Virus record (IMG/VR): IMGVR_UViG_3300010354_000427 | Coordinates: 1-29,195 of that record | Strand: one strand, 5' to 3' | Origin: a virus | Length of the DNA stretch: 29,195 nucleotides | In this document: positions 17,287 to 22,587 of the stretch, piece by piece | Layout of the letters: each line of letters begins with the position of its first letter | Position numbering within the stretch: position 1 is the stretch's first letter | Program-made: the position numbers and the translations under genes | Notes under the pieces: generated by a model | What the model saw: only the letters and a program-made list of their open reading frames with translations | Databases searched by the model: none | What the model was told of the DNA's origin: nothing

Positions 17287-17292
17287 AGACCT

Positions 17293-17322
17293 AGTATAAC
17301 ATCTTTGTCAAAGAAAAAGCAA
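17293..17322 (-). promoter_or_regulatory. Extended -10 promoter for uvsW
   Basis: Minus strand: TTGCTT (17322-17317), 18-bp spacer ending TGT, TATACT (17298-17293), six bases, ATG at 17286. The -10 and TGn extension are clear. TTGCTT is the same -35 as in the promoter at 19205-19233. Confidence 0.6.
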
Positions 17323-17328
17323 GACTTT

Positions 17329-18576
17329 TTACTTTTGAAATAACCACAAATCTTCAAAATTGCCGTCTCTAGTCTTTTTGGCTTGCCTGCTGCCGCCCAT
17401 TGCACTCCACTGTACTCGATAATGGTCAATCAAATTCAAATGCTGTGCAGCTACATCTCTCATATCTTCACTGATAGTAGTCATTCGCTTTTCGGCATTT
17501 CTGTAATTACTGATTACAAAACCAAACTTAGCGCCGGGCTTCATGACTCTTGCACAGAGTTTTACAGTTTCGGACCAGTAGCCGGCGAGCCAATCTTGAT
17601 AGTCAGGAAAATTGGTAAAGCTTTGATCTTCGCTGTTATAAATTTCTAAATCAAAATAAGGAGGGCTTAATAAAACAGCATCCACAGTGTTTTGATATTT
17701 TGCCGCAAACCCATGTTTTGCATCTAGTTGTTCACTAGGACATAGATAAAGGTCAATTTCCTTATCTGCAATTTCAAATAAACTACGATCCCGATAATCT
17801 AGAAACTCTTTGTGTAGCAATTTACCATTGTCTACGACATCGGGTATCACATCTGTAGCAATAAACTTTTTAAACTTGCTACTATAGAATGCTAGCTGAT
17901 AAGCATTCCATCCCATAACAGGAGAGAACAATGTTTCGCCTTCGAACACACTATCGAGTATTCCTTTAAAGGTAGCAGGATTAAATGTGCTGGGACGATT
18001 AGCGCCCATCATAAAGGCCTGCCAGAATGCGCCAGGGTCTCCATCATAGCGACAAATTTGATCGAAGAATGCGGGCCCAACTAAGCTATTACGAAGCTTA
18101 AATTGTTCCATCATGACCTTTAGTAGTCCAAATACATATTCACTGTCATTGGCATACCACTTTTTAGTATTATAGTAATTTAGAAAATTAATATTCTTAC
18201 AGAGCTTTCCATACTTGGCATTAGTTCTGCCGGCGAATACTTTGTTATCTAAAATGTCAGCATTAGGAATTTGAAAGTAAAAGTCTACGGCTTCTGGTAA
18301 ACTGCCTTGACTCTTAAACCACGCCTTAAGAGTTGCTTCAGCATTAGTGACTAATATTTCGTAGAGCTTTTCTTTAAACAAAGGCAATCGTTCCTGCCTA
18401 TTGTCTTTTTTAGCTACTCTGGCAATAAAACTATCTAAGTCTTGTCTTACTTTGAATGTGCCCGACTTATCGGAGATATCTAAGATTTGTATCTGCTGGC
18501 AAAACTCTTCCAAAGTCGGCTTGGATAAATTAAAAAGAGCCAAAAAGTCTTGTTCACTGAACAGTAAATTTTTCAT
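17329..18576 (-). CDS. DNA methyltransferase, SPPY-type amino-methyltransferase
   Basis: Predicted S-adenosylmethionine-dependent N6-adenine or N4-cytosine DNA methyltransferase. Motif IV reads DAVLLSPPYFDLEIY, with SPPY at about residue 304 of 415. The preceding region has ETLFSPVMGWNAYQLAF followed by FIATDV, which occupies the place of motif I but lacks the usual FxGxG. A C-terminal KPGAKFGFVISNYRN strand matches motif V/VI style. The first 200 residues are a helical domain, possibly target recognition. The neighbour upstream (18592-19182) looks like a PD-(D/E)XK nuclease, so the pair may be a restriction-modification unit. Start: ATG at 18576; a GTG two codons earlier is possible. TATAAATA lies seven bases before the ATG. 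Confidence 0.82.
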   Translation of the reverse strand: MKNLLFSEQDFLALFNLSKPTLEEFCQQIQILDISDKSGTFKVRQDLDSFIARVAKKDNRQERLPLFKEKLYEILVTNAEATLKAWFKSQGSLPEAVDFYFQIPNADILDNKVFAGRTNAKYGKLCKNINFLNYYNTKKWYANDSEYVFGLLKVMMEQFKLRNSLVGPAFFDQICRYDGDPGAFWQAFMMGANRPSTFNPATFKGILDSVFEGETLFSPVMGWNAYQLAFYSSKFKKFIATDVIPDVVDNGKLLHKEFLDYRDRSLFEIADKEIDLYLCPSEQLDAKHGFAAKYQNTVDAVLLSPPYFDLEIYNSEDQSFTNFPDYQDWLAGYWSETVKLCARVMKPGAKFGFVISNYRNAEKRMTTISEDMRDVAAQHLNLIDHYRVQWSAMGGSRQAKKTRDGNFEDLWLFQK

Positions 18577-18583
18577 AGTCACG

Positions 18584-18591
18584 TATTTATA
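18584..18591 (-). promoter_or_regulatory. Perfect T4-late octamer before the methyltransferase gene
   Basis: TATAAATA on the minus strand ends seven bases before the ATG at 18576. No Shine-Dalgarno site intervenes. Late expression of the methyltransferase would fit modification of newly made phage DNA. Confidence 0.5.
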
Positions 18592-19182
18592 TCAATCCTT
18601 AAATACTTGACAGTTGTCGATTATAAACTTAGAAGTGAAATTCAACTTTTCTAAAATAATTTTTTCAGGCAACAGAATAATATCTCGTTTCATCTTTGTC
18701 TTGTCTCCGGCGGTACGCTTTAACCAAGCATCGCGTTCAGCCATAAGATAATCTAGCACAATGGTTCTATTTGCTTGATTGCTGATATCATATATACGCA
18801 TTACAGACAAATCTTCTCGATTTCTTGCAACAAGGATATATCGTTGATGATCTAAATCACCCATAGCATGAAATTGAAATGCCGCATCTGTGCCAGCACC
18901 TTTTCTAGGTTTACCTGTAGCAGTGAGGAGACCTGCTACTCGCGTGGCTTTATTCTCAATGAGAATCTCACCACTGCGGGCATCTTCGCCATTCCTGGCA
19001 AAATTTATATTGTAATCGGGATCGTATTGGTTAACAATTTGATATATAGATAATGCACTAAGGGCATCAGTATCTAAGATATCAATCTTGAATTGTTTGT
19101 AGAGCATCGTTCGTATAGCAAAAATTTGCTCGCGAGCCTGATTCATTACACTCAATTCGGGTGCGTTAAAATACTTGGCCAT
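18592..19182 (-). CDS. Putative PD-(D/E)XK restriction-type endonuclease, 196 aa
   Basis: Not a named family, but the core has the layout of a type II restriction enzyme fold: an N-terminal helical part (LSVMNQAREQIFAIRTMLY), DPDYNINFARNGEDARSGE, and ILIENKATRV, where Glu76-x-Lys78 would be the catalytic E-x-K preceded by an acidic residue. A beta strand follows (HQRYILVARN). The start is the ATG at 19182 because GAGG lies six bases before it. It has its own strong promoter (19205-19233) and is followed ten bases later by the octamer of the methyltransferase gene. Restriction activity is inferred from fold hints and the methyltransferase neighbour. Confidence 0.55.
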   Translation of the reverse strand: MAKYFNAPELSVMNQAREQIFAIRTMLYKQFKIDILDTDALSALSIYQIVNQYDPDYNINFARNGEDARSGEILIENKATRVAGLLTATGKPRKGAGTDAAFQFHAMGDLDHQRYILVARNREDLSVMRIYDISNQANRTIVLDYLMAERDAWLKRTAGDKTKMKRDIILLPEKIILEKLNFTSKFIIDNCQVFKD

Positions 19183-19204
19183 AATTACCTCTATTAAAAA
19201 GTAT

Positions 19205-19233
19205 ATTATAGCACAGTAATCAATAAAAAGCAA
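19205..19233 (-). promoter_or_regulatory. Sigma70 extended -10 promoter for the PD-(D/E)XK-like gene
   Basis: Minus strand: TTGCTT (19233-19228), 17-bp spacer ending TGC, TATAAT (19210-19205). The -35 box is made from the 3' arm and first T residues of the preceding terminator hairpin. Leader of about 15 bases with GAGG. Confidence 0.75.
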
Positions 19234-19245
19234 CCAATTGGTTGC
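19224..19245 (-). terminator. Intrinsic terminator after the MutH-like gene
   Basis: Minus strand GCAACC-AATT-GGTTGC, a perfect 16-bp palindrome, followed by TTTTTA. It lies just downstream of the stop at 19251 and overlaps the -35 box of the next gene. Confidence 0.85.
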
Positions 19246-19250
19246 TTATA

Positions 19251-19835
19251 TTATTCGAATAAATTATTAAAATTTTTACGAACTGCTGATATAGTTTCGA
19301 ACTTTTTCATTGTGCCATTTGGGATTCGAAACGCATAAGTGTCCCCTACTTTTCTTTCCCAATAACATTCACAATTGTCTCCGCGAATATAATTCGGAGC
19401 AACTACATCCCTGTCTTTTATCTGACGAAATAATTCTCGACCAGCTTCGTAGGAATTTTCCAAAGATTTCTGTATTGCAGGATCTGTAAAATCATAAATT
19501 TTAGCGTCAGTTACTTCGTAAAATGTTTGATCATGTTTAACCCTAAATTGAGTTTGAAACTTGTCAAAAATCGGAGACTGCTTATAACTGGTTGCGATTA
19601 TGTTAGAAATACTCATTGAAGCAACTGTATGAGCAGACCTTGAGCTAGTGTTGCGAGTTTTAACTTCAACACCAATTTCTTTAAGATCGGGTTCGTTCTC
19701 TTGCGACACTCGATACCCAATGTCTTGCATCACCGACTCGACTTCGGCACCAACATTGCCATATTTTTCTTTTGATACTATCATGCCCTTAAGGGCAGAT
19801 TCTGCCTTAGGCAATTTTACAATTTTTGCTTTCAT
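19251..19835 (-). CDS. MutH/Sau3AI-like DNA endonuclease, 194 aa
   Basis: Predicted DNA nuclease of the MutH/Sau3AI branch of the PD-(D/E)XK superfamily. The active-site stretch EPDLKEIGVEVKTR at about 48-61 places Asp50, Glu57 and Lys59 with the same spacing as Asp70, Glu77 and Lys79 of E. coli MutH, and IGVE(V/L)KT is nearly identical to MutH. Glu31 or Glu33 in GNVGAEVESV may be the upstream Glu. MutH cleaves GATC sites and Sau3AI is a restriction enzyme; specificity here is unknown. It follows the GIY-YIG gene by one base and ends in an intrinsic terminator. AAAAGG precedes the ATG. Confidence 0.75.
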   Translation of the reverse strand: MKAKIVKLPKAESALKGMIVSKEKYGNVGAEVESVMQDIGYRVSQENEPDLKEIGVEVKTRNTSSRSAHTVASMSISNIIATSYKQSPIFDKFQTQFRVKHDQTFYEVTDAKIYDFTDPAIQKSLENSYEAGRELFRQIKDRDVVAPNYIRGDNCECYWERKVGDTYAFRIPNGTMKKFETISAVRKNFNNLFE

Positions 19836-19836
19836 A

Positions 19837-20415
19837 TTAACTTACCTTTTTTCGTTTACGATATGACTCGTCGTTGGCATAAGGCCAGATAGTAGTAATA
19901 ATACTATCTTCGATAGTAGATATCGACTTACTATCTAAGTGTTCGAGATTCCATACTAGTACTGGCAATGAATCTACATTAACTTTATGCTGTACTTTAA
20001 ATTCTAGCACATTAGGAACTACTGTATTACGGTCGGTCTTTTTATAATGGTCAGGAATCGGACCTGTGTCTTCAATAATAAATTTCCTAACTGCTTCTTT
20101 CCAACCTTCGGGAAAAATCCATTTAGGTTCCTTTTTTTCCACAGGAGTTGAATACAATGCAGCCAAATCAACATCCAACTTTGGACGATGTGTTTTGTGT
20201 CGATTGTGTACGGTGTTGGTAGCAGCCTTACCAAAATAGAAATTGACTTCAGGATAGATGTAGTACAGACCTCGGTGCAGGCCTGCTTCTTTACGATTAA
20301 TCGCACCTTCGGTCGTCAAATAAGGCTCAACCCACTGGTGTCCTAAATCAAGAAAGATGCGTTTAATGCTATTAAGGTTTAATTGAAGAGAGCTATTAGC
20401 TGCAAAATCCTGCAT
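19837..20415 (-). CDS. GIY-YIG nuclease-domain protein, 192 aa
   Basis: The segment HRGLYYIYPEVNFYFGKAA at about residues 47-65, followed by VHNRHKTH, matches the GIY-YIG fold: GLY, YI, YFGKA and a catalytic Arg72. The rest contains a basic linker, a WIFPEGW region and a basic end (YRKRKKVS). GIY-YIG enzymes in T4-like phages include homing endonucleases (I-TevI, Seg proteins) and repair or restriction nucleases. The absence of an obvious C-terminal DNA-recognition repeat leaves the type open. The start is ATG at 20415, with TGGAG eight bases upstream; a TTG six codons earlier is less likely. It abuts the MutH-like gene. Confidence 0.7.
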   Translation of the reverse strand: MQDFAANSSLQLNLNSIKRIFLDLGHQWVEPYLTTEGAINRKEAGLHRGLYYIYPEVNFYFGKAATNTVHNRHKTHRPKLDVDLAALYSTPVEKKEPKWIFPEGWKEAVRKFIIEDTGPIPDHYKKTDRNTVVPNVLEFKVQHKVNVDSLPVLVWNLEHLDSKSISTIEDSIITTIWPYANDESYRKRKKVS

Positions 20416-20433
20416 TCGTAATGCTCCAGTCAA

Positions 20434-22587
20434 TTAAAACACATTACGAATCATTACACCAACAGCATTGCCAGTTTGGCCCGAAACGCCACCAACATTA
20501 AACTGACGAGCAACATTAATACCAGCATAAGCACGATTATTGATGCTGACGCTATAGCCGAGGATCATATCAGTCTGTCGCTGTCCTTGTGCAAGATTAA
20601 CTCGCTCGGTGCTCATAATCGGAGTAGCAACTACAGCATCCTCACTGCCATTATAGTTGTAGCCGGTAACCGCAGTTACATCAGCATAGCCACGACGGAT
20701 TGTCACCGGACCATGCACAGACAATGTCAGTTGATCCTTGCTCTTGCCAGTAAAGAAGATTTCCTTTTTAGCAATACCTAGCTTCCAAGTATTGCTAATT
20801 AGCTTAGGACCAACTGCCAAGAAACTGTCAGCAACATTAGAAGTTTTAGTATAGCCAACACCGTAATTACCAACAATGTCCACACTTTCGGCAACAGGAT
20901 AACTTCCGCCAATTACAGCGTAAGCTGTTTGGCTAGCACCGGTGGCAAACAAACCAGTACCTGAGTTATTAAGGAAACCATTTTGTTCCATCATCGAACC
21001 AAACTGGAAGTTGACTCGGCCGGTGCCATATTGGCTGTCATAGGCTACGGCCGAACCCGAATTACTTTGCATTACTGTAAATGAATCTGTCGAACCAACG
21101 GGCACAGTTGTTTCGCGATAGCCTGCACTTTGCATAGCAAGGTACGGGCTAGTGTAAAGACTATTAGCAGGACTGCTAGTGCCAATAGTACGAGTAAAAT
21201 CTGCGGTATAGTTACGATTCAATCCATCTACTACTTGAACATTTTGTAGCACATTACTGACTTTCAGTGCAGGATTAGTCACTGTCAACCCGGTAGTTGT
21301 AATTGCAGTACCGGCTACGGCAGGACCGGCGGTCAACGATAGCTTAGTGTACTTGACATTGGACTGCGGTTGGCTAGCCTTGTCGAAGTTAACAAGACCC
21401 CATCCATAAACTTCGTCTACACCCGGGGCACCGAGATCAGTTGCAGTAGTCTTTACCAATTGAACCAATTGTGCGGCAGTAAGTTGCGGCCAGGCCTGCT
21501 TGAGTACTGCGATGCCACCGGTGACATAAGCAGTAGCCGGACTAGTGCCAGTGGATGGAAATGTCACATTACCAGTTTTAATTTGATTGGGCTGTGACGC
21601 TATAATGGCTTCGCCCGGAGCAACTACAAAGAAGTCCTTGACATAATATTTGTCGTTACATACGGTGCCAGTGAGGTTGTTACAGAAACTGCCTGCGCGA
21701 TTGCTAAATGTGCTAATAACATTTTTAGAATTCACACTTCCGACAATCAGCATGCGACCACCTAATACCAAGTTACCATTCTTGTCAACTTGCGTTGCAA
21801 ACGCACCCGGAAACTGAGCATAAGGAAGACCTTGGTTGCCAGCTGCTGCTACCAATACAATTGTTTTACTAGCATTTGCAAATGCATTTAAATCGCTAAG
21901 GCAATTTCCGTACATACTAGCAAAGCATGGATTAGTTGCACTGGCTCGATTATATGTGCTAGGAGCTTGGTATAGACCTGGAGAAATTAGTTTAACTCCG
22001 CCTTGGAAAGTCTTGTCAAAAGTAGAGCCGAAACTCATATTGGCTGCTACTGCTCGATTAGCTTCGGCCCATGTAAGAGCCGAATAAACCGCAGACATGC
22101 TGATACCTGCATCACTATAGGCCCAGGCCTTAGTGGTAGTATTATAACGAACACCTTCGCCAATTTGTGCCAACAGCAATTGGCTATTATATGCTACCCC
22201 AACAGTGCCGTTATTATCCAATCGGCCGCCAACAATACTGGCCATCATCGTGCCGTGATAACCCCAAGTAATGTCTGTACCTGCTTGAACTTGACTGCGA
22301 ATGTTATTGGTATTAGAAGCAATCTGCGTCAAGCTGGCAGGATTAAAATTTTTGGCTGCTGCTACTTGGCCGCGTAAATCCGTATGAGTTAGATCAAAAC
22401 CCGAATCAAGAACTGCTACTCGAACTCCTTGACCAGTAAAGCCTCGTTGCCATGCAGTAAGAATACCAGTGCGATGAAATTGCAACATAACCTGTTGCTC
22501 GGTTTTGCTGGTAGATGTTTGAGCTTGCACACTTCCGGAAAATGCCGAAATAGCCGCTACTGCAATAAGAGTGAGTTTGAGTTTCAT
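20434..22587 (-). CDS. Secreted subtilisin-like (S8) protease, autotransporter-like, 717 aa
   Basis: An extracytoplasmic serine protease. A Sec signal peptide (MKLKLTLIAVAAISAFSGSVQA) is followed by an S8 catalytic domain with Asp61 (VAVLDSGFDLTHTD), His111 (WGYHGTMMASI), oxyanion Asn251 (VAAAGNQG) and Ser349 (GTSPATAYVTGG). After about residue 410 the chain turns beta-rich, with alternating strands (TAYAVIGGSYPVAE, TDMILGYSVSINNRAYAGIN) and a terminal Phe (GVMIRNVF), the signature of outer-membrane barrels. This resembles S8 autotransporters such as NalP. Highly unusual for a phage; it may alter the infected cell surface. No Shine-Dalgarno site; CTTAAATA ends five bases before the ATG. GC is visibly higher than in most neighbours. 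Confidence 0.9.
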   Translation of the reverse strand: MKLKLTLIAVAAISAFSGSVQAQTSTSKTEQQVMLQFHRTGILTAWQRGFTGQGVRVAVLDSGFDLTHTDLRGQVAAAKNFNPASLTQIASNTNNIRSQVQAGTDITWGYHGTMMASIVGGRLDNNGTVGVAYNSQLLLAQIGEGVRYNTTTKAWAYSDAGISMSAVYSALTWAEANRAVAANMSFGSTFDKTFQGGVKLISPGLYQAPSTYNRASATNPCFASMYGNCLSDLNAFANASKTIVLVAAAGNQGLPYAQFPGAFATQVDKNGNLVLGGRMLIVGSVNSKNVISTFSNRAGSFCNNLTGTVCNDKYYVKDFFVVAPGEAIIASQPNQIKTGNVTFPSTGTSPATAYVTGGIAVLKQAWPQLTAAQLVQLVKTTATDLGAPGVDEVYGWGLVNFDKASQPQSNVKYTKLSLTAGPAVAGTAITTTGLTVTNPALKVSNVLQNVQVVDGLNRNYTADFTRTIGTSSPANSLYTSPYLAMQSAGYRETTVPVGSTDSFTVMQSNSGSAVAYDSQYGTGRVNFQFGSMMEQNGFLNNSGTGLFATGASQTAYAVIGGSYPVAESVDIVGNYGVGYTKTSNVADSFLAVGPKLISNTWKLGIAKKEIFFTGKSKDQLTLSVHGPVTIRRGYADVTAVTGYNYNGSEDAVVATPIMSTERVNLAQGQRQTDMILGYSVSINNRAYAGINVARQFNVGGVSGQTGNAVGVMIRNVF

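What the first reader, a model, noticed from the sequence alone, without database searches (positions are those of the whole stretch)
17329..20415. Accessory block of three different nuclease folds plus a DNA methyltransferase
Four adjacent genes encode a GIY-YIG nuclease, a MutH/Sau3AI-like nuclease, a PD-(D/E)XK-like protein and an SPPY DNA methyltransferase. They sit between UvsW and an S8 protease in a T4-like genome. This could be a phage-borne restriction-modification or host-DNA-degradation system in which late methylation protects phage DNA, or an inter-phage competition module. The nuclease and methyltransferase units have separate promoters (early-type for the 196-aa protein, late octamer for the methyltransferase), which would give a timing difference.
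Basis: partly seen in the sequence, partly recalled or inferred. Interest (0 to 1): 0.75.

Follow-up and report, generated by a model that had tools for sequence, protein, structure and literature searches.

The report
Phage ACGT restriction enzyme plus methyltransferase
This phage fragment carries a two-gene restriction-modification module whose cutting enzyme almost certainly recognises the four letters ACGT, and phages that carry the cutter protect themselves by erasing ACGT from their own genomes, by methylating it, or both.

Summary
The four ORFs exist, but they are not one system. The real unit is the inner pair, P2 (18592-19182) and MT (17329-18576). P2 is a PvuII-fold PD-(D/E)XK nuclease (AlphaFold pLDDT 89.6; best PDB match PvuII, Z 10.0; invariant D67/E76/K78). 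In about 30 viral contigs P2 directly precedes an MT relative. In others the same MT is paired with unrelated nucleases, and P2 with unrelated methyltransferases.

Specificity can be read from the genomes. The window has 9 ACGT against 55 expected. Contigs with P2 but neither of the two main partner methyltransferases have 0 against 258. P2+MT contigs are at 0.04-0.55, P2 with the DPPY methyltransferase 0.54-0.96, controls 0.88-1.04. A relative of the window phage that lacks the module has 52/50. No other 4-mer behaves this way. One ACGT survives in nearly every MT leader (TAAATACGT, rarely ACGTAAATA), at the spot read as a 'late octamer'; this resembles the methylation-sensing promoter of CfrBI.

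The GIY-YIG-like gene belongs to other neighbourhoods. The MutH-like gene has no relatives found and only weak MutH similarity. Cleavage, methylation and regulation are inferred, not measured.

The parts
18592..19182 (-). P2: PvuII-fold PD-(D/E)XK restriction endonuclease, predicted to recognise ACGT; active site D67, E76, K78
   Evidence: 24-row and 20-row alignments with invariant D67-x8-E76-x-K78; AlphaFold pLDDT 89.6; PvuII best fold match, Foldseek E 6e-5, Z 10.0; ACGT purge in carriers
17329..18576 (-). MT: SPPY-type amino-DNA methyltransferase (motif I then motif IV, about 200-aa N-terminal region), predicted to methylate ACGT
   Evidence: A3 alignment of 23 relatives; PF01555/PADLOC type II MTase matches; pairing with P2 and other nucleases
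18578..18591 (-). Leader element TATAAATACGTGAC: conserved TAAATA joined to the ACGT restriction site, just before the MT start; candidate methylation-sensing promoter/operator
   Evidence: 73 of 74 copies of ATAAATACGT in the loci examined lie at an MT; leader ACGT in 34 of 38 nuclease-linked MTs versus 1 of 7 without a nuclease in view
18581..18584 (.). The ACGT site kept in the MT leader, one of nine in the window
19205..19213 (-). Extended -10 (TGCTATAAT) promoter candidate of P2
   Evidence: coordinates
19228..19247 (-). Intrinsic terminator AAGCAACC AATT GGTTGCTT-TTTATT that separates the MutH-like gene from P2
19251..19835 (-). MH: 194-aa protein with a weak MutH/Sau3AI-like motif; neighbour, not shown to be part of the module
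   Evidence: AlphaFold failed (pLDDT 34)
19837..20433 (-). GY: GIY-YIG-like protein (motif only); neighbour belonging to other phage contexts
15835..17286 (-). UvsW helicase, right-hand anchor of the variable site (relative L088 has GY-UvsW, L102 has HNH-P2-UvsW)

Best explanation
P2 and MT are a phage-encoded type II restriction-modification module for the palindrome ACGT. P2, a PvuII-like nuclease, is made from its own promoter and cuts unmodified ACGT in whatever DNA is in the infected cell: host chromosome, plasmids, competing phages. The phage escapes in two ways: its genome has been almost emptied of ACGT by selection, and MT methylates the few sites that remain. Phages with P2 but no MT-type partner rely on complete absence of ACGT; phages that pair P2 with a DPPY methyltransferase keep nearly normal ACGT numbers because methylation is enough. 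The ACGT kept beside TAAATA in the MT leader probably lets MT sense its own methylation and shut off its promoter. SHOWN: genes, predicted fold, active-site conservation, pairing, partner swapping, ACGT purge, leader site. INFERRED: cleavage and methylation of ACGT, the feedback, and the purpose (host-DNA breakdown and exclusion of rivals).
For: Fold and active site of P2. Pairing. Partner swapping: MTs 92-95% identical with P2, HNH or type C nuclease upstream, in collinear flanks with the break at the 3' end of the nuclease gene; P2 next to DPPY methyltransferases. ACGT counts: window 9/54.6, next lowest palindrome 0.74; P2 without MT or DPPY partner 0/258 over 156 kb; P2+MT 10/274 (159 kb), 29/299, 18/152; P2+DPPY 229/238, 65/89, 26/48; controls 323/338, 116/132; window-group relative without module 52/50 and with P2 only 0/30. 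Single-mismatch neighbours of ACGT are normal and no other 4-mer is comparably depleted. Group tests P 1e-5 to 1e-8. Leader ACGT 8.4 per kb in the 100 nt before MT versus 0-1.6 around it; second form ACGTAAATA occurs six times in the loci, all before a methyltransferase, including the unrelated DPPY type.
Against: No biochemistry. Sequence comparison of P2 with PvuII is not significant. Contigs are fragments, so a methyltransferase may lie outside the 'P2 only' pieces; in one of them (G043) a distant SPPY methyltransferase adjoins P2. Avoidance in phages with MT shows that protection by MT is not complete or that the purge is old. Some P2+MT phages lack the leader ACGT (L024, L059, L126), and some are only mildly depleted (G045 0.55). 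In loci where a sigma-70-like promoter lies between element and MT, the element cannot be the -10 of that promoter.
Confidence: 0.82

Rival explanations
1. ACGT avoidance is caused by an ACGT restriction system of the bacterial hosts; MT is an anti-restriction methyltransferase and P2 a nuclease of other specificity.
For: Avoidance of host restriction sites is a common phage strategy (review PMC12707154 cites it); phages with MT but no nuclease in view are also depleted.
Against: Depletion follows P2 and MT across very different phages; the window-group relative without the module has 52/50 ACGT while relatives with P2 or P2+MT have 0/30 and 9/55; P2 with DPPY partner keeps ACGT.
Confidence: 0.08
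2. The four genes form one nuclease-methyltransferase competition or defence block.
For: Adjacency and common strand in this window.
Against: GY and MH relatives are never seen with P2-MT elsewhere; terminator and new promoter before P2; relatives show the site as variable (L088, L102); no GATC avoidance in the window (1.05).
Confidence: 0.05
3. The retained ACGT at the nuclease/MT junction is a recombination or homing hot spot: a co-infecting phage's nuclease cuts there and the repair swaps the nuclease gene.
For: Swap break points lie at the nuclease 3' end, next to the element; nucleases are exchanged often on the MT tree.
Against: Methylation by MT should protect the site; the site is fused to a TAAATA hexamer and stays upstream of the methyltransferase in two forms and before two unrelated methyltransferases, which fits control of expression better.
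Confidence: 0.1
4. P2 is a modification-dependent nuclease of the BisI/NhoI kind that cuts methylated DNA.
For: NhoI and Eco15I are next after PvuII in the fold search.
Against: P2 has E-x-K where NhoI/Eco15I have Q-x-K (PMC11347163); P2 sits beside methyltransferases, and phages with the DPPY one keep ACGT, so methylated ACGT must be safe.
Confidence: 0.04

Closest known systems
PvuII type II R-M system (R.PvuII fold)
   Same: Best structural match over nearly the whole length (Z 10.0, 141 residues, 14% identity); D..E-x-K active site; nuclease next to an amino-methyltransferase
   Different: PvuII recognises CAGCTG (own knowledge); CAGCTG is not depleted in P2+MT loci (1.25) while ACGT is; no controller gene seen; encoded by phages; sequence similarity not significant
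ACGT-specific type II systems (MaeII, HpyCH4IV, TaiI; from own knowledge)
   Same: Predicted recognition sequence ACGT
   Different: Not compared by sequence here; bacterial or archaeal enzymes
CfrBI R-M system
   Same: A recognition site in the methyltransferase promoter whose methylation blocks that promoter (PMC12707154)
   Different: In CfrBI the genes are divergent; here nuclease and methyltransferase run in one direction, and the feedback is inferred only
Chlorovirus R-M systems
   Same: Virus-encoded adjacent nuclease and methyltransferase with short sites, thought to degrade host DNA (PMC7019647)
   Different: Algal viruses; here bacterial viruses, with carriers that appear to have no partner methyltransferase and no sites at all
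R-M systems noted in jumbo phages
   Same: Review already proposes phage R-M for conflict with other phages (PMC7824862)
   Different: No ACGT system, partner swapping, site purge or leader site in the passages I read

Membership tests
Type II restriction-modification system | Endonuclease with restriction-nuclease fold and intact catalytic residues | tested here: met
Type II restriction-modification system | DNA methyltransferase with motifs I and IV | tested here: met
   FxPxMGWN and PPY conserved in 23 rows; PF01555 below the cut-off, above it
Type II restriction-modification system | Genes linked and inherited as a pair | tested here: met
Type II restriction-modification system | Both enzymes act on the same sequence | tested here: inconclusive
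   Indirect: ACGT purge with P2, relaxed with a partner methyltransferase; no enzyme assay
Type II restriction-modification system | Cleavage of unmodified and sparing of modified DNA | not testable with these tools
   needs assays
PvuII-fold nucleases | PvuII-type fold over the full chain | tested here: met
   Z 10.0, Foldseek E 6e-5 on a predicted model
PvuII-fold nucleases | Detectable sequence homology to PvuII | tested here: inconclusive
   hhalign probability 0.1% with a single PvuII sequence
BisI/NhoI modification-dependent nucleases | Q-x-K catalytic motif | tested here: not met
   E76-x-K78 invariant versus QVK/QIK
MutH/Sau3AI family (for MH) | Family profile above cut-off | tested here: not met
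   13.4 bits against a cut-off of 23
GIY-YIG family (for GY) | PF01541 match | tested here: not met
   motif GLYYIY..FYFGK present
T4-type late promoter (for the leader) | TATAAATA used as a recurrent late promoter in the genome | tested here: not met
   Not above chance in the window or three large relatives

The most novel reading that the evidence does not exclude
P2 began as a restriction nuclease without a methyltransferase, whose phages are immune only because every ACGT has been erased from their genomes (an 'antidote by sequence'). Methyltransferases of at least two unrelated kinds were captured later, let ACGT return, and each independently kept an ACGT in its promoter as a methylation-sensing off switch.
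Probability: 0.5. Interest if true: 0.86.

Novelty: new variant of a known kind. Interest (0 to 1): 0.78.

Why it matters
It gives a predicted specificity to an unannotated phage nuclease family from genome statistics alone, testable with one digest. It shows two routes by which a virus can carry a cutter of a common 4-base site without killing itself: erase the site or methylate it. The families form a natural series (cutter alone, cutter plus either of two methyltransferases, module absent) in which the cost of each route can be read as ACGT frequency. It also suggests that restriction nucleases of different folds are exchanged beside one methyltransferase in phages, and that the methyltransferase leader carries the restriction site as a sensor.

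Tried and rejected
Four-gene block: rejected on co-occurrence. T4 late octamer: rejected. MutH identity of MH: left open; single-sequence AlphaFold failed, no relatives in phages, plasmids, viral contigs or 49 related records, profile tests weak. GIY-YIG by Pfam or PDB profile: negative. Bacillus phage G gp293, next to an MT-like gp294, looked like a P2 partner by size but is unrelated (P-loop type sequence). PvuII by profile alignment: not significant. Bacterial homes of the module: the genome scan gave only distant MT relatives, and none of the nine genomes holding them has a P2 match. Exact scan for ATAAATACGTGACC in viral contigs mostly returned chance hits besides MT loci (25 MT-linked, 93 other). 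Types B and C nucleases are related to each other (hhalign 97.5%) but found no PDB relative. No held paper was found that describes an ACGT module or site purge of this kind; the library is incomplete.

Full report
OBSERVATION. The window is a 29,195-base IMG/VR virus fragment. The four minus-strand ORFs exist as described. I call them MT (17329-18576), P2 (18592-19182), MH (19251-19835) and GY (19837-20433). UvsW and an S8 protease flank them.

WHAT BELONGS TOGETHER. Relatives of P2 in viral contigs (18 with the single sequence, 55 loci with a profile) lie directly upstream of an MT relative in most cases. GY relatives (44-71% identical) lie in other neighbourhoods. MH has none that I could find. 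An intrinsic terminator and an extended -10 promoter stand between MH and P2. Three related phages show that the place before UvsW is a variable site: L088 has GY-UvsW, L102 has HNH-P2-UvsW, and the window has GY-MH-P2-MT-UvsW; the UvsW proteins of the first two are 77-78% identical to the window's. The unit is therefore P2-MT.

P2 IS A PvuII-FOLD NUCLEASE. Twenty relatives down to 28% identity keep D67, E76 and K78, the PD-(D/E)XK spacing, plus F104-H105. AlphaFold with 24 rows gives pLDDT 89.6. PvuII is the best PDB match (Foldseek E 6e-5; Z 10.0 over 141 residues, 14% identity), followed by NhoI/Eco15I, whose published closest canonical relative is PvuII (PMC11347163). I checked the PvuII sequence against PDB; profile alignment to it is not significant, so the kinship rests on fold.

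PARTNERS ARE SWAPPED BOTH WAYS. Upstream of MT lie P2, or a 233-aa (type B) or 246-aa (type C) protein, or an HNH-like protein. B and C are one superfamily (hhalign 97.5%); their nuclease nature, and that of the HNH-like protein of L025, is inferred from motifs and position (Pfam is negative). On the MT tree, near-identical MTs (92-95%) carry P2 (L007), HNH (L025) and type C (L027), in collinear flanks where only the nuclease gene differs and the similarity resumes at its 3' end. Conversely, P2 stands beside DPPY methyltransferases (PF01555 E 1e-33 or better for L117, L141, L149; L123 is 76% identical to L117) that the MT profile does not pick up, and elsewhere with no recognisable methyltransferase. 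This is what type II restriction partners with one shared site would do.

THE SITE IS ACGT. In the window ACGT occurs 9 times against 54.6 expected by a Markov model; the next lowest palindrome is at 0.74. Contigs with P2 and no MT or DPPY partner have 0 against 72, 30, 119, 22 and 15 (G038, G037, G043, G048, G003; 156 kb together, 0/258); G043 has a distant SPPY methyltransferase next to P2. P2+MT contigs have 10/274, 29/299, 18/152, 17/89, 14/57 and so on, up to 61/111. Type B/C+MT contigs 4/68 to 63/106. P2+DPPY contigs 229/238, 65/89, 26/48. Controls 323/338 and 116/132, and the module-free relative of the window phage 52/50. Over all 256 4-mers ACGT is alone in this; its single-mismatch neighbours are normal. 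Rank tests against controls and random viral contigs give P of 1e-5 and 1e-8 for P2+MT. Hence P2 very probably cuts ACGT, the DPPY enzyme very probably protects ACGT, and MT protects it well enough for some sites to survive.

THE LEADER SITE. Just before MT sits TAAATACGT, in the window TATAAATACGTGAC at 18578-18591. In 1.28 Mb of loci 73 of 74 copies of ATAAATACGT are at an MT. ACGT density is 8.4 per kb in the 100 nt before MT and 0-1.6 around it. The leader ACGT is present in 34 of 38 nuclease-linked MTs and in 1 of 7 MTs with no nuclease in view (Fisher P 2e-4). A second form, ACGTAAATA, occurs six times in the loci (four distinct), always before a methyltransferase, including the unrelated DPPY kind. 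A restriction site kept at the methyltransferase promoter has a precedent in CfrBI, where methylation blocks that promoter (PMC12707154). I infer such feedback here with about even confidence.

HOW IT PROBABLY WORKS. P2 is expressed from its own promoter and cuts unmodified ACGT DNA in the cell. The phage genome is nearly free of ACGT, and MT covers the rest. The targets are host DNA and competing phages; the data do not separate these. Virus-encoded restriction enzymes that degrade host DNA are known from chloroviruses (PMC7019647), and R-M in jumbo phages has been proposed for phage-phage conflict (PMC7824862).

LIMITS. No experiment; contigs are fragments without known hosts; the methylated base is unknown; MH and GY remain weakly identified; several leaders lack the site.

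Noticed in passing
G038 contig, loci L285-L287 (P2 carrier L109): Besides ACGT (0/72), AGCT is almost absent (o/e 0.05) and GATC is low (0.38): probably a second site-specific nuclease or host system.
   Followed up: partly
GY control contigs L302, L316-L320, L354-L355: GCAGC/GCTGC depleted to 0.30 of expectation, much less so in other sets; another avoided restriction site.
   Followed up: partly
module-bearing contig sets, e.g. L303-L310: ACGCG/CGCGT is low (0.45-0.53) in P2/MT carriers against 0.68-0.81 elsewhere; relaxed-specificity site or separate cause, unexplained.
   Followed up: partly
window 20434-22587: S8 protease with N-terminal signal sequence and C-terminal ...RNVF, like a bacterial autotransporter barrel; a 49% relative lies in L088. 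Unusual cargo for a phage.
   Followed up: no
window 17287-17301; L088 6587; L102 4646: UvsW start codon lies 6 nt after an extended -10 (TGnTATAnT), conserved in three phages: leaderless mRNA likely; in L088 and L102 a GCAA..TTGC hairpin terminator precedes it.
   Followed up: partly
L145-L147, downstream of P2: 184-aa NPPF methyltransferase-like protein beside a distant P2, in contigs with no ACGT at all; partner or not is unclear.
   Followed up: no
L021-L023: MT without a nuclease in view, with its own sigma-70-like promoter and no leader ACGT, yet ACGT-poor contigs (4/22, 0/13, 0/14).
   Followed up: partly
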